Positions 37,784-52,940 of a stretch of DNA of 53,474 nucleotides are shown here, one piece after another; the stretch's first letter is position 1, and each line of letters starts with the position of its first letter. The translations under genes were made by a program, and so were the position numbers. The stretch spans positions 1-53,474 of the IMG/VR virus record IMGVR_UViG_3300045284_000563. One strand, written 5' to 3'. This stretch comes from a virus. The notes beneath the pieces are model-generated. The model had not been told where the DNA came from. It saw nothing but the letters and a program-made list of their open reading frames with translations, and did not search any database.

Positions 37784-37972
37784 ATGGCGAAGGAACGGGC
37801 GATTTGCAAACGGTGCCACCGGCTACAGATCGTGGGATCGCACGTGGGGGCGAATCCTCTACTCAGGCCCGGTTACTGCGCGTCTTGCTCGGAAGCGATC
37901 AATAGCGCCGAGACACCTAGGCGTGCGCGCTCATCTTCGGGTACGGCGGATAAACCCCGGCCCTCGCAGTAA
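37784..37972 (+). CDS. Small zinc-binding protein
   Basis: 62 residues. CKRCHRLQIV and YCASCSEA give a CxxC...CxxC zinc site; the tail is basic and Ser/Pro-rich. It starts 23 bases from the divergent membrane gene and its 3' end overlaps the minus-strand structural gene by 56 bases. Unknown function. Confidence 0.55.
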   Translation: MAKERAICKRCHRLQIVGSHVGANPLLRPGYCASCSEAINSAETPRRARSSSGTADKPRPSQ

Positions 37973-39278
37973 CCGTCGGTTTCGGAGCGACCCTCGGTGG
38001 CGGTGCGGTCACCACGACCGGCTTTTTCGCAGGCGTCGTCTCGTGAACCTGCACGAGATGCTTCGGCGCTGTCTTCGCTTTGATGTACGCAGCGAGCTGC
38101 TTCTGCTGATCGGGAGTGAGCCTTGCGAGTGCGATGTAGGCGATGAGGTCTTTTTGCTCTTGCGGCGTGAGCTTGGCGAGCTGCGCCATGGCGTCCGAGT
38201 TCTTCGCCGCCGTTACGGCCTTCGTCGCTGTGTTGACCGTCGCCTCGTTCGTGCCCATCCGTCTTGCGATTTCGGACGCCGCCAGGTTGGCAATCTCGGG
38301 GTGATTGACGATCGCCGTCGCGACGCGCGTTGCTTCGGGCGGTATCGATCTCGCGACCTCGGTGAGCATCGGCGGGAGCGCAATCTTGTTGAGCTGCCCC
38401 GCGGCAAAGCTCGCAGCCTCGTTGACGAGCGCTTGCTGCACGTTCTGGCCATGCGCGATGGCTGCGCCGACGTCGAATGCCTTTTTGGCTGCGTCGCTTG
38501 GAAGCGCTTCGCGCGCCGCGGCGAGGGCGATCTCGTCGAGGGGCTGACCGTTCGCCACAGCCTTGACCGCGCCGTAGGCGACATCGAAACCCTTCGAGGC
38601 GAGTGCACCACCCGGCAGGGCGTTCTTCGCACCGGCCACGATAGCGTCGGTGATGTTCTCGCCGTTCGCGAGCGCGGCGCCCGCGGCGATCGCTGCGTTG
38701 ACGCCCGTGCCGATGACGGGTACGAACGACATGACGGCTTGCACCGCTTTCGCGATGTCGGACGGAGACACAGACACGCTCGTGACGACGAGGCTCTGGT
38801 TTCCTGTCGCCGCCCTGGCCGCCGCCTGCACAACCTTCGTGGGGTTGAATACGTCGAGCGGAGACGACTTGTTCGCGTAGTAGGCGTTGACGCGCGCTTG
38901 CACGATGTTCGATGCACCCTTGAGCGCCGCTTCGGTCTCCGCCGTCGTGAGCGGCGCACCTTTCTTGATCATCGCGTCGAGCAAGTAGTGATGCATCTCG
39001 AAGAGCATCTGGTCTTGTTTTTGGAGCCCTTTGATCGCTTCGGTCACCTGCGTGCCGATGAGATCGAGCATCTGCTGCGACGGAAGCTGACCTGGATGCG
39101 CGCGGCTCCAGTCGGCCATTGCGACCCGTGTGGGGCGATACCATCCCTGTGGGATGGTCTGAAATGCAGGCTGCACGGCGCTTACCCCTAGCTCTGTGAA
39201 GCCGATATCGCCGAACGAGAGCGCTCCGAAGTCCCAGCCGAGCGCTAGCGCAACTTGTGACGTGTGTTGTGCGTGCAT
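37917..39278 (-). CDS. Repeat-rich, Ala-rich virion-like protein
   Basis: 453 residues from ATG 39278. N-terminal 170 residues are mixed. Around residues 185-290 a module of about 38 residues occurs about three times: AAIAAGAALANGENITDAIV, then GAVKAVANGQPLDEIALAAA, then GAAIAHGQNVQQALVNEAA, with ALPxxA and ALPSDA links. An amphipathic, Gly/Ala-rich VMSFVPVIGTGVNAAIA segment precedes them and may insert in membranes. The C-terminus is Pro/Lys-rich. Likely a structural or DNA-delivery protein; the family is unknown. Confidence 0.65.
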   Translation of the reverse strand: MHAQHTSQVALALGWDFGALSFGDIGFTELGVSAVQPAFQTIPQGWYRPTRVAMADWSRAHPGQLPSQQMLDLIGTQVTEAIKGLQKQDQMLFEMHHYLLDAMIKKGAPLTTAETEAALKGASNIVQARVNAYYANKSSPLDVFNPTKVVQAAARAATGNQSLVVTSVSVSPSDIAKAVQAVMSFVPVIGTGVNAAIAAGAALANGENITDAIVAGAKNALPGGALASKGFDVAYGAVKAVANGQPLDEIALAAAREALPSDAAKKAFDVGAAIAHGQNVQQALVNEAASFAAGQLNKIALPPMLTEVARSIPPEATRVATAIVNHPEIANLAASEIARRMGTNEATVNTATKAVTAAKNSDAMAQLAKLTPQEQKDLIAYIALARLTPDQQKQLAAYIKAKTAPKHLVQVHETTPAKKPVVVTAPPPRVAPKPTVTARAGVYPPYPKMSAHA

Positions 39279-39288
39279 GGTGTCCTTC

Positions 39289-39717
39289 TCAAAACCATTC
39301 GCTGATTAGCGATTCGATCTTCGCGAGAATCGTGACGCCGTGATGGTAACCCCACGGTCGTGTCTCGCCTCCAGGCGGATGGTAGTGTTGCTCTATCCAC
39401 GTCGCGTACGTTTTGCCGTTTCCAGCGATGAACGGCGCGAGCGCTCCGTACTGCATCGAGGTGAAGCCTGGTGTTGATCGAAGCACGTTCGCGCTAATCG
39501 CGAGCTCGGGCAGAGCCGAGACCTCGGAACCCGTTGCCCGACGCCAACCAGACGGAACCGAAAGTGGAACGATGGTGCTCTCGCCGTAGGTCGGTGATGG
39601 GGTCACCGGAGGTACTGGTGCTGGAAGCGCCTCTCGTGCTTTCGCATTTCGGCTCCATAGAAATATGCCCGAGGACGCTGCCAGAGCTCCGAGCGAGATG
39701 ACGAGCAACGTATTCAA
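39289..39717 (-). CDS. N-terminally anchored membrane protein
   Basis: 142 residues. N-terminal transmembrane segment (LLVISLGALAASSGIFLW), Pro-rich linker, then a globular domain with GFTSMQYGALAPF, KTYATWIEQHYHPPGGETR and PWGYHHGVTIL. The domain motifs recall proteins in phage-like elements, family not known. ATGA overlap with the lysozyme-like gene. Probably part of the virion or lysis set. Confidence 0.65.
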   Translation of the reverse strand: MNTLLVISLGALAASSGIFLWSRNAKAREALPAPVPPVTPSPTYGESTIVPLSVPSGWRRATGSEVSALPELAISANVLRSTPGFTSMQYGALAPFIAGNGKTYATWIEQHYHPPGGETRPWGYHHGVTILAKIESLISEWF

Positions 39718-40277
39718 GGTTCATATCTCCTGAACATGGGGTAGGTCGGCTCCGGCGGCGGAAGTGGTCGCGGCTCGGGGCGCCCGGAGAGCCACCTATA
39801 GGCGCCGTAACCCGCTGCGGCGACAATTGCGAGCACCCCCACCGTTGCGGCCACCACCCTTCCGTTCTTTTCTCTTGGAATCGGTGGTGTCACCGGTTGC
39901 GGGATGATCGGAGGCCCCCCGTGGGGCGGATAGACGACGTGCGAGTACCACTTCAGATAAGATTCGTTCTTGAACGTAGACCACGGTTTCCATGTGACGC
40001 CGCCGTTAGAAACCGCCAGCGCCGCGCGTGCGTTGTACTGCGGATTAAGCAAGCTCAGCGGGTCGTACTGCGGGTTCCATGTCGTGTTGATCTGCCAAAG
40101 ACCGAAGCTCGTGCTAGTGCCGTTGAGCCTGTTGCACGGGTGCACGCCGATGTTCGGATCACCTTGTGCGCACGGGTTGCCTCCGCTCTCAGCCATCGCT
40201 ACCGCTGCTGCGAGCACTGGATCTGGAAATCCAGTTGCAGCGGCCAGATCTTGAAGGTCTTTCAGTGAGTAGATCAC
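39714..40277 (-). CDS. Membrane-anchored lysozyme-like (SLT) protein
   Basis: 187 residues. N-terminal lytic-transglycosylase-like domain: AVAMAESGGNP with probable catalytic Glu30, then SFGLWQINTTWNPQY (GLWQI motif) and YNARAALAVS, with a KWY end. A Pro-rich linker and a single transmembrane helix near residues 141-160 (GRVVAATVGVLAIVAAAGYG) follow, then a Pro-rich tail. The orientation would place the enzyme on the outer side. Likely used for cell-wall entry or release. In the same small operon as a membrane protein and an SGNH hydrolase. Confidence 0.8.
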   Translation of the reverse strand: MIYSLKDLQDLAAATGFPDPVLAAAVAMAESGGNPCAQGDPNIGVHPCNRLNGTSTSFGLWQINTTWNPQYDPLSLLNPQYNARAALAVSNGGVTWKPWSTFKNESYLKWYSHVVYPPHGGPPIIPQPVTPPIPREKNGRVVAATVGVLAIVAAAGYGAYRWLSGRPEPRPLPPPEPTYPMFRRYEP

Positions 40278-40849
40278 ACGGTTCTTTGCAGCGGCAAAAG
40301 ATCATTGCGGCCTAGCGTTTGTAATATTTCGTGCGCCCACGGCGCGTACGAAGTCGGGTGGAGTCCGTCGGAAGCGAGTGGTGTGTTGGTCGCCGGCACT
40401 GTCGGTATTCCGAGCGCAGCAATGGCTTTGCGTGTGGCGGGCGCGTTGACGGATGCCGGCGGCTCGATCCACACGGCGCGCGCCCCGATACCTTGAATGC
40501 CTCGCACCAGTGTCTGGTAGTGCCCGCTGTTCGGCGAAGATCCGTCGTTTACTCCGAGCGAGACGAGCACGATGTCGGGCTTGAACGTCGTGAGCCAATC
40601 GCCACAGTTTGCGCACGCCGCGTTGTGGTTGGCCCATTGCCAAGTGGTCGTGCCCACATGTCCTTCCGCGCGAAATTCAGGGAACAGTTTCGCGAGCTCG
40701 GGTCCAAGTCCAACTGCGTAAGAGTCTCCGATAAGAGCTACCCTAGGCGACGTCATGCCCTCCTGACGTCGTTTGACCCCAATCACGGCTACGCCGAGAG
40801 CGCCGAGCGCGAGCCCGCTGGCAGCGACGATTTTCCACGGAAAGCCCAC
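40274..40849 (-). CDS. SGNH/GDSL-type hydrolase, membrane-anchored
   Basis: 191 residues from GTG 40849. N-terminal hydrophobic anchor (residues 6-26, KIVAASGLALGALGVAVIGV), then block I LIGDSYAVGL with nucleophile Ser43, block III SLGVNDG with Asn101, and block V SDGLHPTSY with Asp161 and His164. This is a complete esterase/deacetylase of the SGNH type. It may deacetylate or cut ester-linked cell-wall or capsule sugars. Overlaps the lysozyme-like gene by 4 bases. Confidence 0.85.
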   Translation of the reverse strand: MGFPWKIVAASGLALGALGVAVIGVKRRQEGMTSPRVALIGDSYAVGLGPELAKLFPEFRAEGHVGTTTWQWANHNAACANCGDWLTTFKPDIVLVSLGVNDGSSPNSGHYQTLVRGIQGIGARAVWIEPPASVNAPATRKAIAALGIPTVPATNTPLASDGLHPTSYAPWAHEILQTLGRNDLLPLQRTV

Positions 40850-40898: not shown

Positions 40899-41150
40899 CT
40901 AAGGCCAGAATGCCGCGTATTTTTGCTCGCCAGCATGGACGTAGAGCGCGATCGCGCTGCGCTCGTCGTACTGCCATTCGAACCCGTTCCACATCCACCG
41001 GTAGAGCTTCGTGATGCCCGGCGTGCCGCGTTGCACGTCGTTTTCGTACTGCCAGAGCTGCTCGTCGGTGAGCTCTTGCATCGGCACCCACTGGCCGCCG
41101 TCGTGCATGCCGGGGCGTACCGCCCACCATATAAACCAGTGCGGGTTCAT
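40899..41150 (-). CDS. Trp-rich small protein
   Basis: 83 residues from ATG 41150 (ATGA overlap with the collagen-like gene). Trp/Tyr-rich (PHWFIWWAVRPG, YRWMWNGFEWQY), possibly a carbohydrate- or membrane-interacting protein. A longer frame is rejected. Unknown family. Confidence 0.6.
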   Translation of the reverse strand: MNPHWFIWWAVRPGMHDGGQWVPMQELTDEQLWQYENDVQRGTPGITKLYRWMWNGFEWQYDERSAIALYVHAGEQKYAAFWP

Positions 41151-41785
41151 TGTTTGAAGATGGTCAAGGACCAGGTGAGCCCTTCGAGTAGTGTGTCGGC
41201 TTGCACACCGGCGAAAAACCGAGCTACCCAGGCGGGAGTAAGAACATCGCCGTTCGTCAGGGAGATCAACCTGATGGTCGTGAGACTCAGATTGAAATCG
41301 TCGACGATCGACGCACACACTTGGCCTGCCGCTATCGCGCCGGCACTGAACGCCGCTGTCGTCAAAACGTCTCCGTTCTTGTCGATGGCGAATCCGTAGA
41401 ACGTGACGGACGCGCCGTCGTCTTTCTCGACGGAGCTACCGCAAGTCGATAAGACACTCACGTTTGGACCTGTGTACGTGAGTGTTCCGTTCGCTCCGAG
41501 CGCGAACGATCCGGTCGCATCGGTTAGATCGAAGTCGGCTGCGACTGCGGTGACGGGAACGTAGACGTTGTCGTTTCCGTTGGTGCCTATGGTCAGATCG
41601 GCGTTTACCAGCCGTAACCACGCGGTGCCGATGACTCCTGTCGGTCCCGTCGGTCCAGTTGGCCCTGGCGGCCCTACGCTTCCGGGACCGGTCGGACCGG
41701 TCGGGCCGATTGTTCCCGACGGGCCAACGCCCCGCTCGGGGTATGTCTCTCGACCGCGAGAGTTTCTACCGATGACGTAGGGCAA
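41147..41785 (-). CDS. Collagen-like virion protein with GR-x7-YP anchor
   Basis: 212 residues from TTG 41785 (AAGGATC upstream). N-terminal VIGRNSRGRETYPER is the shared anchor, then a GPTGPTGPG-type collagen stretch (about 10 triplets), then a beta-rich head domain of about 160 residues with TIGTNGNDNVYVPVTAV and LGANGTLTYTG. Collagen-like repeats trimerise in phage fibres. The head has no named family. First gene after a promoter-like site at 41805-41832. Confidence 0.75.
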   Translation of the reverse strand: MPYVIGRNSRGRETYPERGVGPSGTIGPTGPTGPGSVGPPGPTGPTGPTGVIGTAWLRLVNADLTIGTNGNDNVYVPVTAVAADFDLTDATGSFALGANGTLTYTGPNVSVLSTCGSSVEKDDGASVTFYGFAIDKNGDVLTTAAFSAGAIAAGQVCASIVDDFNLSLTTIRLISLTNGDVLTPAWVARFFAGVQADTLLEGLTWSLTIFKQ

Positions 41786-41804
41786 GTGCGGATCCTTGAG
41801 GCCC

Positions 41805-41832
41805 TTCTAACCCCTCGGATTCTACTCGACAA
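41805..41832 (-). promoter_or_regulatory. Probable promoter for the collagen-like gene
   Basis: On the minus strand, TTGTCG (41832-41827), a 16-base spacer, TTAGAA (41810-41805), followed by AAGGATCC and the TTG start at 41785. Lies in the 96-base gap between the O-methyltransferase gene's stop and the collagen-like gene. Confidence 0.4.
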
Positions 41833-41881
41833 CGAGCGGGCGCAACCACTTTCGTTTGTATCTAGCGGATAGTAGAGACTT

Positions 41882-42589
41882 CTAGCGCCACGCGGATGTG
41901 TGTTTGCGCCAGAAAACGCCGGTCCAGTCGATGCGTGTGAGCGGCTCCGTGATCCCGTGCCTCTCCCGAAAATCGTCCGTAGCGGTGCGTGCACCGATGA
42001 GCGAGTAGTCGTCGACGATGACAAATCCGCCCGGTGAAACGCGACCGTAGAGCGCCTCGAGTGTTTGGATCGTCGACCCGTACATGTCACCGTCTAGTCG
42101 AAGGATTGCGAGTTGCTTCACAGGTCCCGGTAGTGTGTCTTTGAACCACCCCTTGAGAAATACGACGCGCTCGTCGAGCAAGTCGTATTTCAAGAAGTTC
42201 TTGCGCACTTCGTCGATGCTGACACGAAGGGCGTCGACCGTGTGGTGGCCGTCTCCTCGATCTACCGGGTAGCGATCTTGATCAGGTGGCGGGAGTCCGG
42301 CGAAAGAGTCAGCGACCCAGACAACACGATCTTCTTTTTCTTCGAGGTCGAGAAGCGCGCGCATGAAGATGCATGCGCCTCCGCGCCACACTCCGGCCTC
42401 TAAAAAGTCGCCCGGCACGTGGTCGGCGAACACGGCGCGGGCGCATTCTTCGATGTTGTCGAGGCGGACGTGGCCGATCATTGTCTCGGCCGTCTCAGGC
42501 CAGTCGCCGCCCCACATGCGTCGAAGTTTCGCTTCTCCTTCGAGTTGTGCGCTGTCGGTAAGGCGACCTTTGAGATCTTCCAGATCCAT
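41882..42589 (-). CDS. TylF-like O-methyltransferase
   Basis: 235 residues. SAM-binding strand GDFLEAGVWRGGACIFMRAL, the acidic RVVWVADSFAGLP (Asp of motif II), LAILRLDGDMYGST and PGGFVIVDDYSL (paired Asp, metal site) match the TylF/macrocin O-methyltransferase family. It would methylate sugar hydroxyls. Downstream of two glycosyltransferase genes in the same direction, so it probably methylates the glycan they build. Confidence 0.85.
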   Translation of the reverse strand: MDLEDLKGRLTDSAQLEGEAKLRRMWGGDWPETAETMIGHVRLDNIEECARAVFADHVPGDFLEAGVWRGGACIFMRALLDLEEKEDRVVWVADSFAGLPPPDQDRYPVDRGDGHHTVDALRVSIDEVRKNFLKYDLLDERVVFLKGWFKDTLPGPVKQLAILRLDGDMYGSTIQTLEALYGRVSPGGFVIVDDYSLIGARTATDDFRERHGITEPLTRIDWTGVFWRKHTSAWR

Positions 42590-43831
42590 CTACTTGCGTT
42601 TCAGGATCGTGAGGCCGTTGTTGTTTCGGAAGCGTTCTACCACCTGCCACTCTGGGTGCGCGGCGACGAACTCTTCCACGGCGGTCCATAGCCCCGGCCT
42701 GGTGCTGTCCTCGCTCATGTCTCCGAAGACTTCGGTGTCGTGCATGATGATGTACTTCTTCGCGCACACTCCGTGCTTTTCTAGTTCAGCCTTGAGCTGC
42801 CGATAGACGTGGTAGGTGTCGATGAAGAGCAGATCGACGGGCTCGATCGTCAAGTCGAGCGTGTCTCTGCGCTCGAACGCGAGATCGGTTCCGGCCTCTT
42901 TCGCGAGTTTCCCTTGCAGTGCGAAGTCGGCGTCGCGGATGTCGTAGCAACGGAGTTTTTTCGGTCTGGCGCGCAGGAACGCCCAAGTGGAACGGCCGAT
43001 GCCGAATTCGGTCACGCTTTCACATTCTTTGGCGTACTTGCAGAGCGTCTCCATGTGCTCGTTGATGTCTGCGGGGGTGTCTCGAAAGAGTACGAAGTGT
43101 CGTTCGATTTCGTCCATGGTTCCGTTCCTGATCCCATCTCCGATGTTGTGGCAAACTTTTTCCAGGTAAGTGTCCCAAATTTCACGTTCGCGATTGACGA
43201 TAGGCGTCCGCTCGTGCACGTGTCCGGTGCTGACCCCACCACGGTGCCAGCAGACTAGATCGCGTAGTGTTACGCCGTGCCAACCGGCTTTTGACAAGAG
43301 CGTGTGGATCCAACCGTCGCCGTACCAAATGAGAAGCTCGGCAGGTACCGGGAAGGCAAGCTCGGTCGCTCTGCGCGTCATGGCGAAGAAGGATCCGCCG
43401 GTGCCTTGCGTGTCGGTCGGTTCAACGGAGGGGGTGTAGTGTCGATCGATCTCTTCGACGTTGTGAACAATGCGCCCGAACCATAACTCGTTTTCGTTGT
43501 TCTTTTTTGCCTGCTCGTAGCGCATCAACAGCGACTCCGCCCAACCAGGAGCCGTTGCGAGATCAGCGTTTGCGACCACGAAGATCTCGGCGCTCGAGGC
43601 GAGAAATCGCGCCGCGAGCTCGTTCCAGGCCGGGTAGACGTACACATTTTTTTCGTGTCGAATTATCGAAATCTCGTTCGACATCTCGTAGAGCGCCAGC
43701 TTCACATCGGTCGAGCCTCCGTTGTCGACCGCAACCACATCCACCGAGGGGTGTTGGAAAGAGCGCAACGCCTTGAGCAAGAGCTCGCGATCTTCTGCAA
43801 AGCAAGCGGTGCCCAGCATAATTCGCGTCAT
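42590..43831 (-). CDS. Glycosyltransferase 2 / methyltransferase two-domain protein
   Basis: 413 residues from ATG 43831 (ATGA overlap). N-terminal GT-A domain (residues 1-~270): RIMLGTACFAEDRELLLKAL, VVAVDNGGST, VVANADLATAPGW (nucleotide-sugar/metal Asp region), LIWYGDGWIHTLLSKAGW. C-terminal Rossmann domain: VTEFGIGRSTWAFLRA, PVDLLFIDTYHVYRQLK, YIIMHDTEV: a CmcI/Methyltransf_24-type SAM-dependent methyltransferase. So one protein may transfer a sugar and then methylate it or the peptide. Adjacent to TylF gene and GT/propeller gene. Confidence 0.75.
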   Translation of the reverse strand: MTRIMLGTACFAEDRELLLKALRSFQHPSVDVVAVDNGGSTDVKLALYEMSNEISIIRHEKNVYVYPAWNELAARFLASSAEIFVVANADLATAPGWAESLLMRYEQAKKNNENELWFGRIVHNVEEIDRHYTPSVEPTDTQGTGGSFFAMTRRATELAFPVPAELLIWYGDGWIHTLLSKAGWHGVTLRDLVCWHRGGVSTGHVHERTPIVNREREIWDTYLEKVCHNIGDGIRNGTMDEIERHFVLFRDTPADINEHMETLCKYAKECESVTEFGIGRSTWAFLRARPKKLRCYDIRDADFALQGKLAKEAGTDLAFERRDTLDLTIEPVDLLFIDTYHVYRQLKAELEKHGVCAKKYIIMHDTEVFGDMSEDSTRPGLWTAVEEFVAAHPEWQVVERFRNNNGLTILKRK

Positions 43832-45798
43832 GGTTTGATCCATTTCATGGCTTCGATCTCCTTGATGTCGACCTGCGATATCCACGCCTCTCTGTCGCGA
43901 ACTCCGTAGGAAAGAACGAGTTGTTCGTTGTCCAGGGCGAGACCGGCGCAGAACTCGATACCGAATCCGGCAAAGACCCACGCAGGGGAGACGGCGATCA
44001 CGCTGAACTTCTTGTCAAGTCGCACGAACCGATGAAGGTAGACCCGACTTTCGTCCGTTTCGATGGTCTCGTGTGTGACGCAAAGGTAACCGTCTTGCAG
44101 TGCGATAGCCGCTCCGCCACGTAGATGTTCGAGGGCGAAGGGACACTTTCGGAGCGGCCCGGGAAGAATTGCCGTCGGATCGAGTGAGTAAATCCACGTG
44201 AGCATGCCGTCGATAGCGAGCGGCATCCAATTCTTCTCGTGCATTTGGTTGGTTGGCTGCACCTCACGGCGCGTGACGTCACCCTCGTCATTGAAAAAGA
44301 GTCGTGCAATGAGCCGTCGATCTGTGTCGTGGTCACAGACCGTGGCACTCGCCCCAAGAACGTTGCCGTCCAGTTCGTCGAGCGAGACCAGCCGAATATC
44401 TTCGTACCCGACGATGCGCGACGGCACTCGAAGTGAACGATCTAGGTCTCGGATTAGCCTGTGGTCTACAAGTTCCACGTTGGGTGTGAGTTTGCCGAGG
44501 TAGTTCTCCGTACGCACGATGCCCTCAGGGTCGTGGACGGTGTATTCACGCCCGTTCAGTGAGTAGTTTACGGTCCGCACCACGCACCAGAGCTCGCCCT
44601 TGTGCCAGCAGATACTCGGGTTCATCGGATGCCATCCGTTTGGTGGCCTGAACGTGATCTCTGTGTTGTGCGCGGTTGGGCAGAAGCTCGAGAGAGCCGG
44701 TGGCCGGAGCATTGATCGGGCCTCGAATCGGCGGGGATTCGATTGCGTGATGCTGAGCCGGTCTAGTTCGTGATTATCCGAGACGCCAAGGCGGGCGCGT
44801 TTGGCAGCGTGAAAATCTAGCTCGGCTTGTGCGCGTTCAGGGCCGGGCGGGAGTACGAATCGAAGCACGTCGTAAGGGAGTTCGTAGAGCGCCGGCATAT
44901 GGCGGAACCAGTCGCGCTCGGGGCCACAGCCTTTGTAGCGCCCCACTGCCGCAGCCATTCGTGACCACGCAATGGCCTGATCGGCGCGTCCGAGTTTGCA
45001 CGCGCACAATCCTGCCATCCAAGCGCACTCCGCGAAATGGGCGTTCGCAGAAAGACCTCGTGCAGCGGCCACGATGGCCTCGTCGAACAATTCTAAATTG
45101 AAAAGTTGCTCGGCCTGTTTGTATGCGGCCCAGGCGGCTTCGTCGCCTACCTTTCGAAGCCCGACACATTCACCGAACGCTATGGCGGCGAGCTCCTTAG
45201 CGCCGATCCCTTCGTAAGACGCACCGAGATAGTAACGCCAACGTGGATCGTCTGGGTGTTTCTTGATGTAATCCGTGAGGAGTCTGATATCGCGTTCGAA
45301 CTTTTTTTGCGCCTGCTCGTGGGATTTGCCGAGCTCGTAGAAAGTTGCGCCTTCGAGTGTTTCGAACGACCTGACTATGAGTGTTTCGTGCGTCGGTCCG
45401 GTGAAGTACGCTCCCGACGAAGCGCGAACGATTTTTTCTTTCGGGTATGATCCGTCTGCCGCTTCGATGCGTATCGAATCGGCCCGCACATTAGAAAGCG
45501 TCGCACGGAGATCGAGATTTCCGAAGTCTAGGCGCTCGTCGGAGTCGACGATGAGTGTCCAGGTTGCCCCGAGCGCTTTGGCGGCTTTGAGTCCGGCGTT
45601 GCGCGCCGTCGAGAAGTCCGACCATTTGTGTTTGACGATTTCTAGCTTGTCGCCCGCGACTTCTTTCGCTCGTTCGACGGTGCCGTCTTTGATGCCGGTG
45701 TCGAGCAAGAGAACAAGGTCGACGTGATCTACGACGCTTAGGAGCGCGTCCGCGATTTCGTGTTCGCGACTGTCCGTGATGGTGACGCTGACGATCAC
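43828..45798 (-). CDS. Three-part glycosyltransferase, TPR, GH130-like protein
   Basis: 656 residues from GTG 45798 (GTGA overlap with the RHH gene); the longer frame is rejected. Residues ~1-185: GT-A domain with VDHVDLVLLLDTGIKD, FSTARNAGLKAA and WTLIVDSDERLDF. Residues ~190-320: TPR-like helices. C-terminal ~290 residues: five-bladed propeller-like domain of GH130/GH43 type, with WHPMNPSICWHKGELW, YEDIRLVSLDEL, GHRGGAA-like and GIEFCAGLALDNEQLVLSYG. Such an enzyme could add sugars to a fibre and trim or read glycans. Peak size for a phage glycosyltransferase. Confidence 0.7.
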   Translation of the reverse strand: MIVSVTITDSREHEIADALLSVVDHVDLVLLLDTGIKDGTVERAKEVAGDKLEIVKHKWSDFSTARNAGLKAAKALGATWTLIVDSDERLDFGNLDLRATLSNVRADSIRIEAADGSYPKEKIVRASSGAYFTGPTHETLIVRSFETLEGATFYELGKSHEQAQKKFERDIRLLTDYIKKHPDDPRWRYYLGASYEGIGAKELAAIAFGECVGLRKVGDEAAWAAYKQAEQLFNLELFDEAIVAAARGLSANAHFAECAWMAGLCACKLGRADQAIAWSRMAAAVGRYKGCGPERDWFRHMPALYELPYDVLRFVLPPGPERAQAELDFHAAKRARLGVSDNHELDRLSITQSNPRRFEARSMLRPPALSSFCPTAHNTEITFRPPNGWHPMNPSICWHKGELWCVVRTVNYSLNGREYTVHDPEGIVRTENYLGKLTPNVELVDHRLIRDLDRSLRVPSRIVGYEDIRLVSLDELDGNVLGASATVCDHDTDRRLIARLFFNDEGDVTRREVQPTNQMHEKNWMPLAIDGMLTWIYSLDPTAILPGPLRKCPFALEHLRGGAAIALQDGYLCVTHETIETDESRVYLHRFVRLDKKFSVIAVSPAWVFAGFGIEFCAGLALDNEQLVLSYGVRDREAWISQVDIKEIEAMKWIKP

Positions 45799-45974
45799 TT
45801 GTTGACCCGTCGTGCTTCCGAGAGCGCGAGCATGCGCACCCACGCCGAGGCGGTACCGATGCCCGTTCGTTGTGCAGCGCGGACGATCTCGCGTTTTTCG
45901 GCGCCGGAAACGCGGAAGATCAGTCGATCGTCTTTACGCTCGGATTCCGTTTTCTTGGGTCGACCTAGACGCAT
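45795..45974 (-). CDS. RHH-type regulator of the glycan cassette
   Basis: 59 residues from ATG 45974. Basic arm RLGRPKKTESER, strand LIFRVS, helices GAEKREIVRAAQRTG and ASAWVRMLALSEA: ribbon-helix-helix, like 5097-5285. First gene of the cassette, directly downstream of a promoter with an inverted repeat, so autoregulation is likely. Confidence 0.7.
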   Translation of the reverse strand: MRLGRPKKTESERKDDRLIFRVSGAEKREIVRAAQRTGIGTASAWVRMLALSEARRVNK

Positions 45975-45984
45975 TCCGAGCGAG

Positions 45985-46013
45985 ATAATGTACTAACGAA
46001 AAAAGTACGTCAA
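45985..46013 (-). promoter_or_regulatory. Promoter and operator of the glycan cassette
   Basis: Minus strand: -35 TTGACG (46013-46008), 17-base spacer, -10 CATTAT (45990-45985). Within the spacer GTACT and AGTAC (45990-45994 and 46004-46008) form a perfect 5-9-5 inverted repeat, a likely binding site for the RHH protein encoded next. The region is AT-rich for this genome. Confidence 0.5.
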
Positions 46014-46018
46014 GCACG

Positions 46019-46834
46019 TCATTGCTTCTTGTAAAATCGCCCCAATCCTGTCGTGCTCCCGTCGACGTTGTTCGTGGCGATGTTGAAATATTGACTGTTG
46101 TCCGCATCGCCTGGGCCGATGCGGTACCAGGAAAAACGCTCTACGAAACTACGGCGATGTAGCCCGGCGACCATTTTCTGCATGAATTCGAATACGGTGT
46201 TGTCGGACGGGTTTGATGGGAGCGCGGTAAAGTTGATCACGGCGAATTCTTTGAGCCAGATCGGTTTGTGATATTTTTCCCAGATGGCGTCTAGGTTCGC
46301 AAGAATGGCGTTGGCGCCAATGGTCGGGTCCGGTTGAAGGGCGCTGTCGTAGTACTGATCGACTGGGATGAAATCGAAGTCAGGGCTACCGAGAAGTGTG
46401 ACGAACTGATCGAACCAGGCGCCCGGGGTCGTGATCAGAGTAGGAGTGCCCATCGTAGGCGCGCTGATGCGCATTCCTGTTGCACGAATTGAAGGCCAAA
46501 GCGCGGCAGCTTGTGCCGGCGTCATGTTTGCCTGGTCGGCGTGGTCAGGTTCGTTGAAAGTAAGCAACTCGCCTGTCGACGAATTCGCCTGTGCGAGTAC
46601 GAGATTTCCTGCCGAGTATTGAGATCCGTAGGCGGCTCCAGTGCTATCGCCGTAGATCATCGGAATGAAAGAGACCCCAGGCGGGATCGAGAACCCTTGC
46701 GCCAACGGATCCGTGGAGACGTAGTAGTTATACGTCCAGTGGATCGGGTTTAGCTCTGCTGCGACCTCGGCTTGAGACAGCCACGCGGCGTTGCCGGCAG
46801 CGACAGAGTTCCACTGCTGGTTTAGCGGATTCAC
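46019..46834 (-). CDS. GH128-like (Asl1-type) glycoside hydrolase
   Basis: 271 residues from GTG 46834; the frame is open a little further upstream but lacks a better start. TFNEPDHADQ (Glu95, acid/base), SAPTMGTP, DFIPVDQYY, and IWLKEFAVI (Glu196, nucleophile) fit the TIM-barrel GH128/Asl1 family of glucanases. Secretion signal absent. May be a polysaccharide-degrading depolymerase of the virion or associated with the glycan cassette. Sits between the cassette and a collagen-like gene. Confidence 0.75.
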   Translation of the reverse strand: MNPLNQQWNSVAAGNAAWLSQAEVAAELNPIHWTYNYYVSTDPLAQGFSIPPGVSFIPMIYGDSTGAAYGSQYSAGNLVLAQANSSTGELLTFNEPDHADQANMTPAQAAALWPSIRATGMRISAPTMGTPTLITTPGAWFDQFVTLLGSPDFDFIPVDQYYDSALQPDPTIGANAILANLDAIWEKYHKPIWLKEFAVINFTALPSNPSDNTVFEFMQKMVAGLHRRSFVERFSWYRIGPGDADNSQYFNIATNNVDGSTTGLGRFYKKQ

Positions 46835-46886
46835 AGGAGCGATTTGAAATACGCCACCTTTTTTGTTGGCATTCGCGTTCAGACCG

Positions 46887-48320
46887 TCAAAAGTTCACGC
46901 GGGTCTGCTCGCCAGCAGAACCCGCACCTCCTGTCGATCCGCTGGCAGCGGTTCCTGCGCTTCCTCCGACGCCGAGCGCCGAATTGGCCGTTTGTGATTG
47001 CAGGTTGAATACGATTCCGAAACCACCAGCAGCTCCGCCTCCACCGTCACCGCCTCCAGCGCCTCCGCTGCCGGTGCCTCCAGTGCCTCCAGCGCCTCCG
47101 TCAATAGAGAGACCGCCTGTCACGGAGCCAATGATATTGCCTGCGACTACGATTCCGAAACCGCCACCACCGCCGGATCCTCCACCACCGCCGCCTCGAG
47201 CGCCTGCGGCGGGTGATCCACCGTTGCCGCCGGTTCCACCTTTGGCCGAGATGAAGCCGGCAGCCGCGCCTGTGACGATGAGCGTACGCGTTGCGAAAAG
47301 GAGGCCATGTCCGCCTTGCGCGCCGCCTCCACCTCCGCCGCCTGCTGTGCCGTCGCCTCCACCGCCACCGCCACCAGGACCACCGGCGCCACCGTTAAAC
47401 GAGAGCGCGCTACCAGTTACGCTGATGTTGACGCCGCGGTTGAAGATCGCCAACAGATCAAGGCGATGAGGGAGGTTGCCGCCGTCTCGAGTAACTGTGA
47501 TTCCCGCTCGCGTTGCGCCGCCCGGGTTTGCGCCCGCAGTACCGCCTTTGCCGGACGTACTTGTCGAGCCGCCTGACGATCCGTTTCTAGGTTGCGGTGC
47601 GGCAGCTTGATTGCCGCCTGCTGCGCCGCCCGCACCGCCTGCGGTGCCTAGACCTGCTGCGCTTGGAATGGTGAGCCCGTCTGCTTCGGTCGTGCCGCCG
47701 GCTGTGCCTGCTCCGCCGCCTGCGGCGCCGTTGCCTGCTGCTGCGCCCACACCGCGGAAGATCGTGTCCACAGGCATGCCTGTGAGATCGGTTATGCCGC
47801 TGCACCATAGCCGGAAGCCGGCGACGTCGATCTTTGCGGTTCCCGTGAGTGTGATCGACGAATAGTAGGTGTCGCGTGTGAGCGTCGTCGTGCCGCTTGA
47901 TTGACTCAGCGCTCCGTCGCTGCCATCCCCGAAGAGCGAGAAGAGCATGTACGAATTGACGAGTGCAGCGTTGGTAACGCCAGGTCCCGTTGGTCCAGTC
48001 GGTCCGGTGGGCCCGGTGGAGCCGCGTGGCCCAGTCGGTCCGGTGATGCCTTGAGCTCCACTAGGTCCGGTCGGTCCGGTGATGCTTACGCCGGCCGGAC
48101 CTGTCGGCCCTCCGGGGCCTGCCGATCCACCGGGACCCGTTGGTCCTGCTGATCCGCCTGGACCTGTCGGCCCCCCAGGGCCCGTTGGTCCACCTGGACC
48201 TGTTGGTCCTGCTGATCCGCCACCACCCGGGCCCGTTGGTCCCCCGGGACCTGTTGGACCGCTGCCGGAAGAGCCCGGCCCTGTGGGTCCTGTAGGCCCT
48301 TTGCAGATCAGAGGGATCAT
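46887..48320 (-). CDS. Large collagen-like and glycine-rich fibre protein
   Basis: 477 residues. Residues ~7-115: collagen-like GPTGPGGPT-type triplets (about 33). Residues ~115-175: a beta-rich [16 protein letters not shown] and [14 protein letters not shown] region. Then long Gly/Ala-rich blocks (GGxGGxGG) separated by short beta segments such as [11 protein letters not shown] and [16 protein letters not shown], suggesting a polyglycine-II type helical bundle as in some phage adhesins. It lacks the GR..YP anchor. Likely host-recognition or tail-fibre protein. Confidence 0.75.
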
Positions 48321-48321
48321 T

Positions 48322-49059
48322 TTACGGTAAGTTTGCTGCGACGAGTGTTGAGGGGCCCAATTGTTGGACTAGTGCGGCAGGGATCTGCCACACCTCGAGC
48401 GAGCAACTGGCGAATAAGCCGCTGTCGCCTCCAACGGTCAAGAACGGGCTACTGTCTAGGCCCACGTAGGTCATCGTGATCGCCGGATCGCCTCTCCCGT
48501 CTACTGCTGATCTTACTCTGATCGTCGCTCGTGTTTTTCCGGCAGGCACTGCGAAATAGCACGTCTGTGTAAGCGTAGCGTTGACAAGAGGAGGATCGGG
48601 CGCTTCGTTGTCTTGAACGACCTTAGCTTCTGTAGAGCTGTCGTTGACGTTGAACCATCCGGTAGGATAGGCGCCCACTGGATCGTCGAAGGATACAGCG
48701 ATCCACGCTCCTGTTGTTCCGCCGTCCGGCGGTGTCGCCGCACCTAACACGTTCAGAGAGTACGTACATCTGAGCACGGCGCCTGGAGTTAGTCCGGTTA
48801 GTACGACTTGCATCGGGTTGGCTGAAGCGTCGCGCATGACCTCCAGGCCGCCGGTTCCAGCATAGGCGTTGTTGGATGCGGTGTTCGTCTCTATAACTTG
48901 GTCGTATCCAAAAGGTCCGAGGCTCGCTGTGGGCGAGCCTGCCGGTCCCGTGGATCCCGACGAACCCGTAGGTCCTGTTGGTCCGCTGCTCGAGGGTGCG
49001 GAGGGTGGAGAGGGGTAGGTCTCTCGAGCGTACCGTCCTCTTCCGGCGATGTATGGCAT
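48322..49059 (-). CDS. Collagen-like virion protein with GR-x7-YP anchor
   Basis: 245 residues. N-terminal [13 protein letters not shown] (anchor), a short Gly-Pro stretch ([17 protein letters not shown]), then a beta-sandwich-like domain with [27 protein letters not shown]-type loops and [12 protein letters not shown] short collagen stalk with one head domain. Probably a decoration or short fibre. Head family unknown. Confidence 0.7.
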
Positions 49060-49065
49060 TCGAAA

Positions 49066-49998
49066 TTACACTTCTGCAATCGTGCTGCTGATGAGTGTGA
49101 CTGCCGTTTGCGCGAGTGCTCGACCGTTGAGGGTCGCACCGGCTTGCATGGCGATGCCTGTTGCTCCGAGAATTTCTCCGTTGACTGTCACACCCGGGAA
49201 GATGGTGACTTGTCCAGTCACGGCCCAGAAAACGTTTTCAGGGAGAATACCGCCCACTAGAAGCACGTCTTGATGAATGTCGAGCGTTCCTTGGACTTGG
49301 ATGATGATGCCGTCTCCAGCTCCGCCGTTTATCGTCAACGGGCCCGCAGTGATGCTGGAGGCGCCCGTGTATCGATAGACGAACCCAGCCGTGAGTGGCG
49401 AATCGGCGGCGATATCGCCACCGGCTGACGAGGTGTCCGGCGTTCTCCCTATGGCGTCGTTGTACGCGGTGATCATGTCGGCGCTGGCGAGCACCACCTT
49501 GGCGGGTGCCGGCACCGCGTAGTCGGGCGCAAATACGTGTCCGAGTTGCGGGGGCACTCCAGGAAACACTTGCGAGGACGTGGAGAACTGACCTCCGCCG
49601 TCGAGTACGAGTGCGAATCCTGTGATGCTCGCAGAGGCCGCCGGGTTGATACCCATGTCGCCGTCGACTGTCGATCCGCCTGTGGTCGTGATGCCAGATT
49701 GCGCGAAGATGGCGAAGTCGCCGGCCGTGAGTAGATCGACGAATTCCGTTGGAGGAGTAGGTCCCGTTGCTCCCGTCACTCCAGTAGATCCGCTAGGACC
49801 GGTGGAGCCACCCATACTGCGGAGACTGATTGCTTGGTCACGAGGGCGCGACGCCCAACTCCAGCCGCCGTACTCGCTGTCGAAATGTGGGGCGCCGTGC
49901 CGACGCTCTCGATACGCCGCTTCGTCAATGAGCTGCCTCGGCGCGCCGTTCTCTGAATGGCCGCCTTTGTTCTTCAGATTTTTCAATTTGCGGCGCAT
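49066..49998 (-). CDS. DUF3494 ice-binding-like domain on collagen-like stalk
   Basis: 310 residues. N-terminal basic and mixed region, then a short GSTGPSGSTGVTGATGP stalk (residues ~68-82), then a ~225-residue domain matching DUF3494 (type I ice-binding): FAIFAQSGITTTGGSTVDGD, MGINPAASASITGF, PAPAKVVLASADMITAYNDA, GDIAADSPLTAGFVYRYTG, GDGIIIQVQGTLDI, NVFWAVTGQVTIFPGV, GEILGATGIAMQAGATLNGR. The usual features of this beta-solenoid are all present in order. In a virion it is probably a surface adhesin. Ice binding is unproven. Confidence 0.85.
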   Translation of the reverse strand: MRRKLKNLKNKGGHSENGAPRQLIDEAAYRERRHGAPHFDSEYGGWSWASRPRDQAISLRSMGGSTGPSGSTGVTGATGPTPPTEFVDLLTAGDFAIFAQSGITTTGGSTVDGDMGINPAASASITGFALVLDGGGQFSTSSQVFPGVPPQLGHVFAPDYAVPAPAKVVLASADMITAYNDAIGRTPDTSSAGGDIAADSPLTAGFVYRYTGASSITAGPLTINGGAGDGIIIQVQGTLDIHQDVLLVGGILPENVFWAVTGQVTIFPGVTVNGEILGATGIAMQAGATLNGRALAQTAVTLISSTIAEV

Positions 49999-50020
49999 GA
50001 GGTATCCTTTTGTGTGAAAT

Positions 50021-50049
50021 AGCCCCGCGTCGCGTCAACGACCGGGGCT
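50021..50049 (+). promoter_or_regulatory. Strong hairpin upstream of the HNH-AP2 gene
   Basis: AGCCCCG (50021-50027), bulge C, GTCG, loop CGTCAA, CGAC, CGGGGCT (50043-50049). It lies between the divergent DUF3494 and HNH-AP2 starts, 30 bases before GTG 50079. It may be the terminator or translation-control hairpin of the HNH gene. No T-run follows. Confidence 0.45.
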
Positions 50050-50078
50050 CGGCTCGGCCTCAAACTAGGAGGCGAACG

Positions 50079-50777
50079 GTGACAGAGTATAGAAAAACCT
50101 GCGAGGTGTGTACCGTATGTTTTGTTACGACACATCCGGCGCAACGATCTTGCGGTCAGGTTTGTGGCTACAAACTTAGAGGCGCGGGCACAAGTGTCGC
50201 TGCGGCAAGAAGGCGCGTGGCTGTCGCGCCTCCGCCTGAGCCAGGCGTTCTGTTCATTCCGCTCACACGGGGCAAATTTGCGAAAGTGGACGAAGGGGAC
50301 TTCGTGCACGTATCTCAATGGAACTGGGCACACTACCGAGACAAGTACGGGCGAGAATACGCTGTTAGGGGTTACGGCATATTCCTTCATCGGCAACTCA
50401 TGCAAGCCGAGAGAGGAGAACAAATTGACCACAAAAATGGCAACGGACTCGACAACAGAAGAGACAACCTTCGCAAGGCTACTGCGACCGAGAACAACAG
50501 AAATCGCATGAAACTTCGTGCGCCGTGCGCATCGAAATATAAAGGAGTGTGGCGCCACTACGACAAATGGGGCGCCGCGATTTGGGACAAAGGTAAGAGC
50601 ATCAAGCTCGGACGATTTGATACCGAAGCGAAGGCTGCCGAAGCTTACGACGCAGCGGCCAGGCGACTGCACGGCGAGTTTGCCCGCGTCAACTTTCCGA
50701 TCAACGGGGAGCAGTCGGCGATTCATCGTTCGTTCCCTTCGACCGGTTCGCCGAGCAAGTTCACGAGCACTGCGTAG
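50079..50777 (+). CDS. HNH-AP2 homing endonuclease
   Basis: 232 residues from GTG 50079 (AGGAGGCGAACG upstream). N-terminal Cys-pair zinc site (CEVCTVCF ... CGQVCG), then an HNH core (LHRQLMQAERGEQIDHKNGN, LDNRRDNLRKATATENNRNR), then an AP2 domain (SKYKGVWRHYDKWGAAIWDK, LGRFDTEAKAAEAYDAAARR). The only plus-strand gene in the fibre region. Typical freestanding homing endonuclease that inserts near its target. Its 3' end overlaps a minus-strand gene by 55 bases. Confidence 0.9.
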   Translation: MTEYRKTCEVCTVCFVTTHPAQRSCGQVCGYKLRGAGTSVAAARRRVAVAPPPEPGVLFIPLTRGKFAKVDEGDFVHVSQWNWAHYRDKYGREYAVRGYGIFLHRQLMQAERGEQIDHKNGNGLDNRRDNLRKATATENNRNRMKLRAPCASKYKGVWRHYDKWGAAIWDKGKSIKLGRFDTEAKAAEAYDAAARRLHGEFARVNFPINGEQSAIHRSFPSTGSPSKFTSTA

Positions 50778-51010
50778 GCGAGTAGCGCTAAGAAGCTCGT
50801 GCCGGTGCCGGCGATGAATGTGTTGACGATGCGCCCGTGTCCGACGTCGAGAAGTCCGCTCACGCCAGCCGCTGCGCCGACCCAAAACCCGAAGCATTGA
50901 GCGCACCCGAGCAACGCAGGCCACAACTTTCGAATCGGCCTGAAGAGGGTGCTATCGACGACGATGAGTGTCGTGCCGACAGCCGCGCAGAGGACGAGGA
51001 ACTCACGCAT
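50723..51010 (-). CDS. Three-pass membrane protein (DUF1360-like, weak)
   Basis: 95 residues. Three hydrophobic segments: FLVLCAAVGTTLIVV, CFGFWVGAAAGVSGL, FIAGTGTSFLALLAYAVLV. The LGCAQCFGFWVG turn has a CxxC-type motif found in DUF1360 proteins. ATG abuts the previous gene's stop. Possible holin or virion membrane protein. Confidence 0.5.
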   Translation of the reverse strand: MREFLVLCAAVGTTLIVVDSTLFRPIRKLWPALLGCAQCFGFWVGAAAGVSGLLDVGHGRIVNTFIAGTGTSFLALLAYAVLVNLLGEPVEGNER

Positions 51011-51565
51011 TTACGGCAATTCCATGACCGACAAGTTGGTGAACGCCAGTTGCACCAGCGCGTTGCCGCCCGCGACTTCCGTTAAAACTACTGCGATCAC
51101 GACAGGGACTCCGATTGGCAATGGCTGTGAAAATCCAGACGGCGTAAGGCTGCCGTCTGCATTACCGGCAAGTGCGGTGAGCGCCTCGACTCCGATCACA
51201 GGCGAGCCGATAGTTCCGCCAATGACGGGAGGCGTTCCGGAGCCTATTACCCAGCCGTTGGATGTGGTTTCGCCGCCCGAAACACTTAGACCTGTTCCGG
51301 GTATAATTTCCATTGCTAGTGCGTAAGTGTCGGCGCCCGCTCCGTTTTGTAAGAGGAGGTTCGACGATAGCTGAAGCACACCACTGACCTTTGGCGTGAA
51401 CAGGATCGCAGCGATGAGGCTGTTGGCCGGTGTAAAAGGCACCGTGAGTATTGTCGTGTCGGCGATATTTCGATTGCGCAGCGCCGCTACCGCTGCGCCC
51501 GCTGCCGCGGATCCTTCCGGGTACGTGCCGAATACGTTACGGCCTCTTCCTAGAATTCGTGCCAT
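51011..51565 (-). CDS. Virion protein with GR-x7-YP anchor
   Basis: 184 residues. N-terminal ILGRGRNVFGTYPEG (anchor), then a beta-sandwich-like domain: TTILTVPFTPANSLIAAIL, VSGVLQLSSNLLL, GVPVVIAVVLTEVAGG, LVQLAFTNLSVMEL. Pattern of a small jelly-roll decoration domain. No family recognised. The paralogues at 52418-52936 and 52941-53447 have similar VTGxLxFSGxV strands. Confidence 0.7.
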   Translation of the reverse strand: MARILGRGRNVFGTYPEGSAAAGAAVAALRNRNIADTTILTVPFTPANSLIAAILFTPKVSGVLQLSSNLLLQNGAGADTYALAMEIIPGTGLSVSGGETTSNGWVIGSGTPPVIGGTIGSPVIGVEALTALAGNADGSLTPSGFSQPLPIGVPVVIAVVLTEVAGGNALVQLAFTNLSVMELP

Positions 51566-51574
51566 CGGATCACC

Positions 51575-52219
51575 TCAACCTGGAGTTTCTAAAGCGAGCT
51601 GTCCGAGTGGACCTTGAAACACGGATCCGGCGGCGAGCTCGCTGCATTTCAGGATCGCGCCCGGAATTCCAGGCTCGTCCACAGATCCGTTCAGGAACAT
51701 GGTCGCAGTGGCGTCTGAGAAAAAGTAGTACACGCGAACGATCGGCGGCGCTGTGACGGGCGTTGTGCCAGGGATGCCGTCCACGACGACCGGCATCGGA
51801 TCGACGATCGTGATGGCGTCCAAGCTCCGCAGAAGGATCGACGGGTCGGCGATGACGGCAGTATCGACCCGATCGAGCGACGCCGACGGAACGAGCGTGT
51901 AGAAGGTCACGCCGCCGTCTACGCTCACCTGGATTGTGGTCGATACGTTGAGCTGTCCCGGCTCGTCCATGCTAACGCTCTGGGAGTTCAACCTGAAGTC
52001 GACCTCTAGCGTGTTGCCCATGGTGAAATCTGGGAACACGACCGACATCGGATCGAGCGCTGAGTTTCGAGGAAGGAACGGTGTGTTGGGCGTAAGCGAA
52101 TTTACGACCTCCATTTCATCGACGATCCCGTCGTACCCGACACGCACGAGCGCTCCGCTGCCGCCACTCGACGCTCTTTCGGGGTAGACCTCTTGCGATT
52201 TTCTGCCTGTGGTCTTCAT
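51575..52219 (-). CDS. Virion protein with GR-x5-YP anchor
   Basis: 214 residues. N-terminal TTGRKSQEVYPERASSGG (shorter anchor), then a beta-rich domain with NTLEVDFRLNSQSV, TTIQVSVDGGVTFYTLVPS and IVRVYYFFSDATATMFLNG. Likely a structural head or fibre-like protein. Next gene downstream is 51011-51565. Confidence 0.65.
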   Translation of the reverse strand: MKTTGRKSQEVYPERASSGGSGALVRVGYDGIVDEMEVVNSLTPNTPFLPRNSALDPMSVVFPDFTMGNTLEVDFRLNSQSVSMDEPGQLNVSTTIQVSVDGGVTFYTLVPSASLDRVDTAVIADPSILLRSLDAITIVDPMPVVVDGIPGTTPVTAPPIVRVYYFFSDATATMFLNGSVDEPGIPGAILKCSELAAGSVFQGPLGQLALETPG

Positions 52220-52404: not shown

Positions 52405-52417
52405 TGATGCTCTCCTC

Positions 52418-52936: not shown

Positions 52937-52940
52937 TGGT

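What the first reader, a model, noticed from the sequence alone, without database searches (positions are those of the whole stretch)
41882..46013. Glycan-making cassette within the fibre region
A TylF O-methyltransferase, a GT2/methyltransferase fusion, a GT/TPR/GH130-like fusion, and an RHH regulator form one operon between collagen-like genes. The set looks like a pathway that makes a methylated glycan, probably on the Thr/Ser/Pro-rich collagen stalks next to it.
Basis: partly seen in the sequence, partly recalled or inferred. Interest (0 to 1): 0.72.

Follow-up and report, generated by a model that had tools for sequence, protein, structure and literature searches.

The report
Swappable glycan-making genes beside viral collagens
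An unclassified virus carries a small set of genes that most likely builds a methylated sugar chain on its own threonine-rich collagen-like fibres, and close relatives exchange fibres and sugar genes together as one block.

Summary
Four overlapping minus-strand genes (41882-45974) encode an RHH protein, a GT2-TPR/GH130-like fusion, a GT2/methyltransferase fusion and a TylF sugar O-methyltransferase, between collagen-like fibre genes. TylF is certain (Pfam 6e-95). GH130 is sub-threshold by sequence but strong by predicted fold (Z 20). The GT2-TPR half folds like SunS/ThuS (Z 23/21) and matches GmaR, enzymes that glycosylate peptides and proteins.

The window belongs to an uncharacterised virus lineage of 30 IMG/VR loci sharing a capsid-region protein. 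18 of 29 records carry the GT2-TPR/propeller protein; partner enzymes vary, and TylF is peculiar to this window. All 15 records with Pfam collagen also carry a glycosyltransferase; only 4 of 14 without collagen do (p=5e-5; dereplicated, at least 50 kb, p=0.0015). In these collagens 75% of Gly-X-Y triplets have Thr at Y, against 9-48% in other viral and bacterial collagens. A colinear relative (about 89% DNA identity) replaces the whole fibre-plus-glycan block.

Most likely the cassette builds a methylated O-glycan on collagen-stalk threonines. Sugar, linkage and target are inferred. The principle is known (mycobacteriophages, PBCV-1 A064R, mimivirus L230), so this is a new variant of a known kind.

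The parts
45795..45974 (-). Small RHH (NikA-like) DNA-binding protein, first gene of the operon
   Evidence: Pfam NikA-like E=4.7e-5, below its cut-off; a 48%-identical homologue sits just upstream of the same GT gene in L082/G025
43828..45798 (-). GT2-TPR glycosyltransferase (residues 1-290) fused to a GH130/GT108-like beta-propeller (residues 367-656); the conserved core of the cassette
   Evidence: Pfam GT2 1.7e-6 and PHROG 13126 8e-24; PDB profile hits GmaR 3e-9 and SunS 1e-8; AF2 model vs SunS Z 23.3, GH130 Z 20.4; 18 of 29 lineage records; EDxR motif invariant in 15 of 15 homologues
42590..43831 (-). GT2 glycosyltransferase fused to a class I SAM methyltransferase (CmcI / Methyltransf_24-like)
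   Evidence: Pfam GT2 4.5e-5, Methyltransf_24 0.0042, CmcI 0.027; 64% identical gene next to the same partner in L012; matched inside one 1587-aa protein in L088
41882..42589 (-). TylF-type sugar O-methyltransferase
   Evidence: Pfam TylF 6.2e-95; PDB 4cdz 9e-71, mycinamicin 3''-O-MT and NovP about 1e-65
46019..46834 (-). GH128-like glycoside hydrolase catalytic core in the same fibre block
   Evidence: PF11790 8.8e-34; 28% identical gene in the fibre block of L092/G013
41147..41785 (-). Collagen-like fibre protein with the lineage's N-terminal 'GR..R.TYP' motif
   Evidence: PF01391 weak, several phage tail-fibre PHROGs; G-P-T repeats
46887..48320 (-). Collagen-like fibre protein, longest Gly-X-Y runs 14 and 11 triplets
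   Evidence: phrog_5073 tail fibre 1.9e-15; repeat runs
48322..49059 (-). Collagen-like fibre protein with the TYP motif
   Evidence: repeat and N-terminal motif
49066..49998 (-). Fibre protein with short collagen stalk and an Ice_binding-like domain; marks the edge of the exchanged block
   Evidence: PF11999 6.9e-46; DNA similarity to G012 resumes at 49079
41150..49078 (.). Block replaced as a unit between this virus and its close relative G012
   Evidence: blastn: 89% identity up to 41149, nothing until 49079

Best explanation
The operon builds a methylated O-glycan on the virus's own fibres. Inferred order: (1) the GT2-TPR domain, the part of the 656-aa protein that resembles SunS, ThuS and GmaR, docks the unfolded fibre chain in the cytoplasm through its TPR repeats and attaches the first sugar to Thr (or Ser), most likely at the Y position of Gly-X-Thr collagen triplets; (2) the fused GH130/GT108-like propeller and the GT2 domain of the next protein extend the chain; (3) the fused methyltransferase and TylF cap it with O-methyl groups; (4) the chains trimerise into stalks carrying the glycan. 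The glycan would stiffen the hydroxyproline-free triple helix and give the virion a changeable surface. Because glycan and fibre must match, they are exchanged together as one cassette. Shown: the domains, the operon spacing, the synteny, the association with collagen, the Thr bias and the block replacement. Inferred: acceptor, sugars, linkages, order and benefit.
For: Operon with overlapping genes. TylF matches solved sugar O-methyltransferases. GT2-TPR matches protein glycosyltransferases by profile and fold. In the TPR-containing flagellin transferase FlmG, the TPR part binds the protein substrate (PMC7591256). The propeller keeps the EDxR motif in 15 of 15 homologues, aligned with the GH130 'GIEDAR' stretch in a weak profile match. 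GT2, MT, GT2-TPR and propeller regions are matched in one 1587-aa protein in L088/G019. 18 of 29 lineage records carry the protein. Collagen+ records: 15 of 15 have a GT; collagen-: 4 of 14 (p=5e-5, or 0.0015 dereplicated and at least 50 kb). Loci with the flanking markers but no cassette also lack collagen: G010, G017, G023, G031. Thr at Y in 75% of 2180 triplets, vs 8.9% viral, 20.2% EHEC prophage, 48.3% Gram-positive (PMC3368898 Table 4). Some cassettes hold NDP-sugar enzymes: dehydratase + RmlD + GT25 in L030, sugar C-methyltransferase in L085. Block replacement against G012.
Against: No virion, glycan or expression data. G002/G003 carry the cassette beside fibres without collagen, and G029 has a GT2 without collagen, so collagen cannot be the only target. 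Thr-rich repeats may reflect repeat expansion, not glycosylation. The collagen/GT association is not corrected for phylogeny and all records may be fragments. The GH130-like domain misses Pfam's cut-off and its substrate is unknown. The GT2/MT protein has no PDB profile hit and its structure was not predicted. The window's own collagen runs are short.
Confidence: 0.6

Rival explanations
1. The cassette glycosylates other virion proteins (globular fibre heads or capsid proteins), not the collagen stalks; the collagen association is a by-product of sharing one hypervariable locus.
For: G002/G003 have a large cassette next to non-collagen fibres. The fibre proteins of the lineage share an N-terminal TYP motif that a TPR could recognise.
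Against: Collagen and GT presence are strongly associated over whole records, and the collagen repeats are exceptionally rich in Thr at Y.
Confidence: 0.2
2. The cassette alters the host's surface polysaccharide (serotype conversion or superinfection exclusion).
For: Phage-borne glycosyltransferases often do this (established for gtr operons, own knowledge). The cassette is optional and swapped.
Against: No transmembrane segments in the cassette proteins, whereas gtr systems use a flippase and membrane GTs. The closest solved relatives of the main GT act on peptides or proteins. The genes sit in the fibre block.
Confidence: 0.1
3. The cassette glycosylates modified DNA bases or a secreted small molecule.
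For: GT plus methyltransferase sets also occur in those pathways; TylF is an antibiotic-tailoring family.
Against: No partner genes for base modification or scaffold synthesis seen in the cassette; relatives lacking the cassette exist; the cassette travels with fibres.
Confidence: 0.05

Closest known systems
SunS / ThuS S-glycosyltransferases (SPbeta prophage and Bacillus) and Listeria GmaR flagellin GT
   Same: GT2 catalytic domain plus TPR, same fold over residues 1-266 (Z 21-23; GmaR 3e-9 by profile)
   Different: No GH130-like propeller; targets are bacteriocin peptides or flagellin; only about 18% identity
PBCV-1 A064R (GT-GT-methyltransferase fusion building the methylated end of a capsid glycan; PMC9614988)
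   Same: Virus-encoded glycosyltransferase and O-methyltransferase domains in one chain; glycan-gene mutants change antigenic class
   Different: Algal virus, N-glycan on the capsid protein, different GT families; homology not tested
Mimivirus L230 (collagen-glycosylating enzyme; PMC9614988)
   Same: Virus enzyme that glycosylates its own collagen-like protein
   Different: Acts on hydroxylysine with a fused lysyl hydroxylase and a GLT25D1-like domain; here Thr is the likely site. A GT25 gene occurs in relative L030
Virion glycosylation in mycobacteriophages (own knowledge; papers listed, primary paper not read)
   Same: Phage GTs thought to act on virion proteins; TylF-like O-methyltransferase genes in some mycobacteriophages
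   Different: Tailed phages; no collagen link tested here; no mycobacteriophage match to the GT2-TPR/propeller protein
Bacillus BclA collagen-like glycoprotein (own knowledge, not found in the paper library)
   Same: Gly-Pro-Thr collagen carrying methylated O-glycans
   Different: Spore protein; relation of the enzymes not tested

Membership tests
TylF/MycF sugar O-methyltransferase family (PF05711) | Profile match above the curated cut-off over the full domain | tested here: met
   317.8 bits vs cut-off 23, profile positions 54-264 of 264
TylF/MycF sugar O-methyltransferase family (PF05711) | LDGD and DDY motifs (metal-binding acidic residues, from own knowledge of MycF/NovP) | tested here: met
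   LRLDGDMY and VDDY aligned with 4cdz; positions 165 and 193
SunS/GmaR-type GT2-TPR protein glycosyltransferases | GT2 domain with DxD followed directly by TPR repeats, same fold | tested here: met
   DSDE at residue 85; SunS Z 23.3 over 260 residues, rmsd 2.3
SunS/GmaR-type GT2-TPR protein glycosyltransferases | Transfer of sugar to a peptide or protein | not testable with these tools
   needs an enzyme assay
GH130 / GT108 mannoside phosphorylases and mannosyltransferases | Five-bladed propeller fold | tested here: met
   Z 20.4, 255 aligned, rmsd 3.3 (GH130); Z 16-17 (GT108 MPTs)
GH130 / GT108 mannoside phosphorylases and mannosyltransferases | Sequence score above Pfam PF04041 cut-off | tested here: not met
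   13.1 bits vs 26; only 1 of 15 homologues at E<=0.01. So it shares the fold and may work like GH130/GT108, but is not filed as a member
GH130 / GT108 mannoside phosphorylases and mannosyltransferases | EDxR catalytic motif (role of the Asp from own knowledge) | tested here: met
   E, D and R invariant in 15 of 15; aligned with the GH130 'GIEDAR' stretch in a weak profile match
Virus-encoded virion glycosylation systems | Glycan present on virion protein | not testable with these tools
   needs mass spectrometry
Virus-encoded virion glycosylation systems | GT genes linked to virion surface genes across relatives | tested here: met
gtr-type serotype-conversion cassette | Membrane flippase and membrane-anchored GT | tested here: not met
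   No clear transmembrane segment in the cassette proteins by hydropathy
Tailed phages (Caudoviricetes) | Terminase large subunit and portal | tested here: inconclusive
   PF03237 and PF04860 absent from 22 lineage records including the window; divergent versions not excluded

The most novel reading that the evidence does not exclude
A lineage of apparently tailless, jelly-roll-like DNA viruses of prokaryotes carries Gly-X-Thr collagen spikes in which dense O-glycosylation of Y-position threonines replaces proline hydroxylation as the triple-helix stabiliser, and exchanges matched spike-plus-glycosylation cassettes, giving changeable surface types.
Probability: 0.3. Interest if true: 0.8.

Novelty: new variant of a known kind. 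Interest (0 to 1): 0.62.

Why it matters
It links a virus-encoded glycan pathway to a chemically plausible target through several independent signals, in a lineage whose capsid-region proteins match nothing in Pfam or PHROGs. If true, it shows how viruses without proline hydroxylation could stabilise collagen, gives a new protein-glycosyltransferase architecture (GT2-TPR plus GH130-like propeller), and offers a natural pair of matched fibre/glycan blocks in closely related genomes with which the role of virion glycans in adsorption could be tested directly.

Tried and rejected
Genome-contig scans with the GT2-TPR/propeller alignment and with the capsid-region alignment found no bacterial or archaeal relative, so the host is unknown. 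PDB profile search with the GT2/MT protein: nothing. GT2/MT has no relative in INPHARED phages. The capsid-region protein model is poor (pLDDT 59); its best matches are jelly-roll capsid proteins but at Z <= 6.6, within what chance can give, so no fold is claimed. A scan for viral relatives of the GH128-like hydrolase found none. My first collagen regex required Pro and missed Ala/Thr-rich repeats; I replaced it by Pfam PF01391 over whole records. The idea that TylF or RHH is a core member was dropped. The TylF profile search rang in no control genome, so TylF absence in relatives rests on that search plus local tblastn. TylF relatives L003-L011 lie outside this lineage and show no long Gly-X-Y runs within their fetched flanks, so TylF alone is no marker of collagen glycosylation.

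Full report
OBSERVATION. The window is one whole IMG/VR virus record of 53474 bases, linear and possibly a fragment. Reading the sequence gives tighter limits: RHH 45974-45795; GT2-TPR/GH130-like 45798-43828, whose GTG start overlaps the RHH stop; GT2/MT 43831-42590, in an ATGA overlap; TylF 42589-41882, starting on the base after the previous stop. This spacing is what a single operon shows. The same block also holds a GH128-like hydrolase (46019-46834, PF11790 8.8e-34).

DOMAINS. TylF is unambiguous (6.2e-95) and matches solved sugar O-methyltransferases (4cdz, mycinamicin 3''-O-methyltransferase, NovP) at 3e-64 or better, with the LDGD and DDY motifs kept. The GT2 domains pass Pfam's cut-offs narrowly. 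The methyltransferase half of the GT2/MT protein is weak by profile (Methyltransf_24 0.0042, CmcI 0.027) but is found in many other viral contigs at about 37-54% identity. GH130 fails its cut-off (0.045). An AlphaFold2 model from four sequences (mean pLDDT 73) resolves two domains: residues 1-266 align to SunS (Z 23.3) and, over 1-273, to ThuS (Z 21.0); residues 367-656 align to GH130 phosphorylases (Z 20.4) and to the mannosyltransferases MPT of Leishmania (GT108; Z about 16.5). The sequence profile independently hits GmaR and SunS. Thus the N-terminal half belongs with GT2-TPR enzymes that glycosylate peptides or proteins. In FlmG, a TPR-containing flagellin O-glycosyltransferase of another GT fold, the TPR part is what binds the protein substrate (PMC7591256). 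The propeller keeps E, D and R of the EDxR motif in 15 of 15 homologues; a weak profile match aligns it with a GH130 'GIEDAR' stretch. I describe it as GH130/GT108-like, not as a GH130 member.

RELATIVES. The GT2-TPR/propeller protein finds L012/L032 (67% identity), L030/L031 (58%) and, for the propeller alone, L002. In L012 the GT2/MT gene follows it as in the window (64% identity), then a different methyltransferase and a CgeB-like GT stand where TylF is. In L002 the propeller is a separate ORF near a GT2-TPR-like frame and a Gly-X-Y-containing ORF. In L088/G019 one 1587-aa protein is matched by the GT2, MT, GT2-TPR and propeller regions of the window's two proteins. Such fusions and splits are the classic sign that the parts work together.

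THE LINEAGE. A capsid-region protein from L012's contig finds 30 IMG/VR loci. None of the three adjacent capsid-region proteins has a Pfam or PHROG match. Terminase PF03237 and portal PF04860 are absent from 22 records including the window, while positive controls ring. The predicted capsid-protein fold has only weak matches, nearly all to jelly-roll capsid proteins (Z at most 6.6), so a tailless virion is possible but unproven. The window does not contain this protein, probably because the contig stops before it (in relatives it lies upstream of the fibre genes), but it shares GDSL, lytic transglycosylase and fibre genes with lineage members and is colinear with G012, which carries the capsid-region protein (L048).

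CASSETTE CONTENT ACROSS THE LINEAGE. 18 of 29 records have the GT2-TPR/propeller protein or its propeller. TylF was found in none (no positive control in that search), RHH clearly only in G025. Partners vary: methyltransferase + GT2 (G012), NDP-sugar dehydratase + RmlD + GT2 + GT25 + methyltransferase (L030), sugar C-methyltransferase (L085/G016), GT4-type GT + methyltransferase-like protein (G009), GT4-type GT + Anp1-like protein (G014), a lone GT2 between two collagens (G015). This looks like a variable glycan locus with a frequent initiating enzyme.

LINK TO COLLAGEN. Over whole records, all 15 with Pfam collagen have a Glycos_transf_2 or Glycos_transf_1 hit, against 4 of 14 without collagen: p=5e-5, 9e-5 after removing near-identical records, 0.0015 for records of at least 50 kb. 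Exceptions are G002/G003 and G029 (GT, no collagen) and G014 (collagen repeats below the Pfam cut-off). Loci with the flanking marker genes but without a cassette (G010, G017, G023, G031) have fibres without collagen. The test ignores phylogeny.

THREONINE. Across 29 collagen-like open frames of the lineage (one is an antisense frame and overlapping pieces may be counted twice), 1629 of 2180 Gly-X-Y triplets (75%) have Thr at Y. Published Y-position Thr frequencies are 8.9% (viruses), 20.2% (EHEC prophage collagens), 48.3% (Gram-positive bacteria) and 3-4% (human) (PMC3368898 Table 4). The same paper names Thr glycosylation as a known way to stabilise collagen and notes that bacteria and viruses lack prolyl hydroxylation. 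This gives the glycan a plausible site and benefit. In the window itself the runs are short and about half of the triplets have Thr at Y.

BLOCK REPLACEMENT. G012 (IMGVR_UViG_3300047409_000726) matches the window colinearly along most of its length, at 88-94% around 31.4-41.1 kb. Similarity ends at 41149, just past the 40899-41318 gene and at the end of the collagen gene 41147-41785, and resumes at 49079 (74-76%). Taking G012's two contig ends as joined (inferred from colinearity), its counterpart of about 8.3 kb holds other fibre genes with collagen at two places and a diverged GT2-propeller gene (31%), a methyltransferase and a GT2, in opposite orientation. Fibres and glycan genes were thus exchanged together between close relatives.

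MECHANISM. Best reading: cytoplasmic O-glycosylation of fibre chains by the GT2-TPR enzyme, chain extension by the fused propeller and the second GT2, capping by two methyltransferases, then trimerisation. Hydropathy shows no clear membrane segment in any cassette protein, which disfavours a gtr-like host-surface pathway. Acceptor residue, sugars, order and benefit are inferred.

KNOWN RELATIVES OF THE IDEA. PBCV-1 A064R combines two GTs and an O-methyltransferase in one protein and mutations in it change antigenic class; mimivirus L230 glycosylates viral collagen at hydroxylysine (PMC9614988). Mycobacteriophage virion glycosylation is reported (primary paper not read). The present system differs in its enzymes, its likely Thr target and its virus lineage, so it is a new variant of a known kind.

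Noticed in passing
L035:6551-9472 (G001) and homologues in L040-L069: Three adjacent capsid-region proteins define a lineage of 30 IMG/VR loci with no Pfam or PHROG hit and no terminase or portal hit; the poor model resembles jelly-roll capsids weakly. Possibly an undescribed group of large tailless DNA viruses of prokaryotes.
   Followed up: partly
window 49066-49998: Fibre protein with a full Ice_binding-like (PF11999) domain, E=6.9e-46, behind a short collagen stalk; only its N-terminal segment is conserved across the lineage.
   Followed up: no
fibre genes in window 41147-53447 and lineage loci: Many otherwise unrelated fibre proteins share an N-terminal motif of the form GR..R.TYP, probably an attachment or assembly signal.
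   Followed up: partly
window 50010-50777 (+): HNH/AP2 homing-type endonuclease gene on the opposite strand inside the fibre block; homologues at the same place in L030 and L032.
   Followed up: no
L090:5106-7781 (G027): B12-binding radical SAM protein interrupted by an intein with a LAGLIDADG domain, next to a glycan cassette.
   Followed up: no
window 37917-40849: Small proteins with one hydrophobic N- or C-terminal segment (SGNH/GDSL esterase, SLT lytic transglycosylase) in one cluster, as in viruses with an internal membrane.
   Followed up: no
L012:1590-4772: 1060-aa fibre-region protein with kelch repeats (galactose-oxidase-like) followed by glycine-rich repeats.
   Followed up: no
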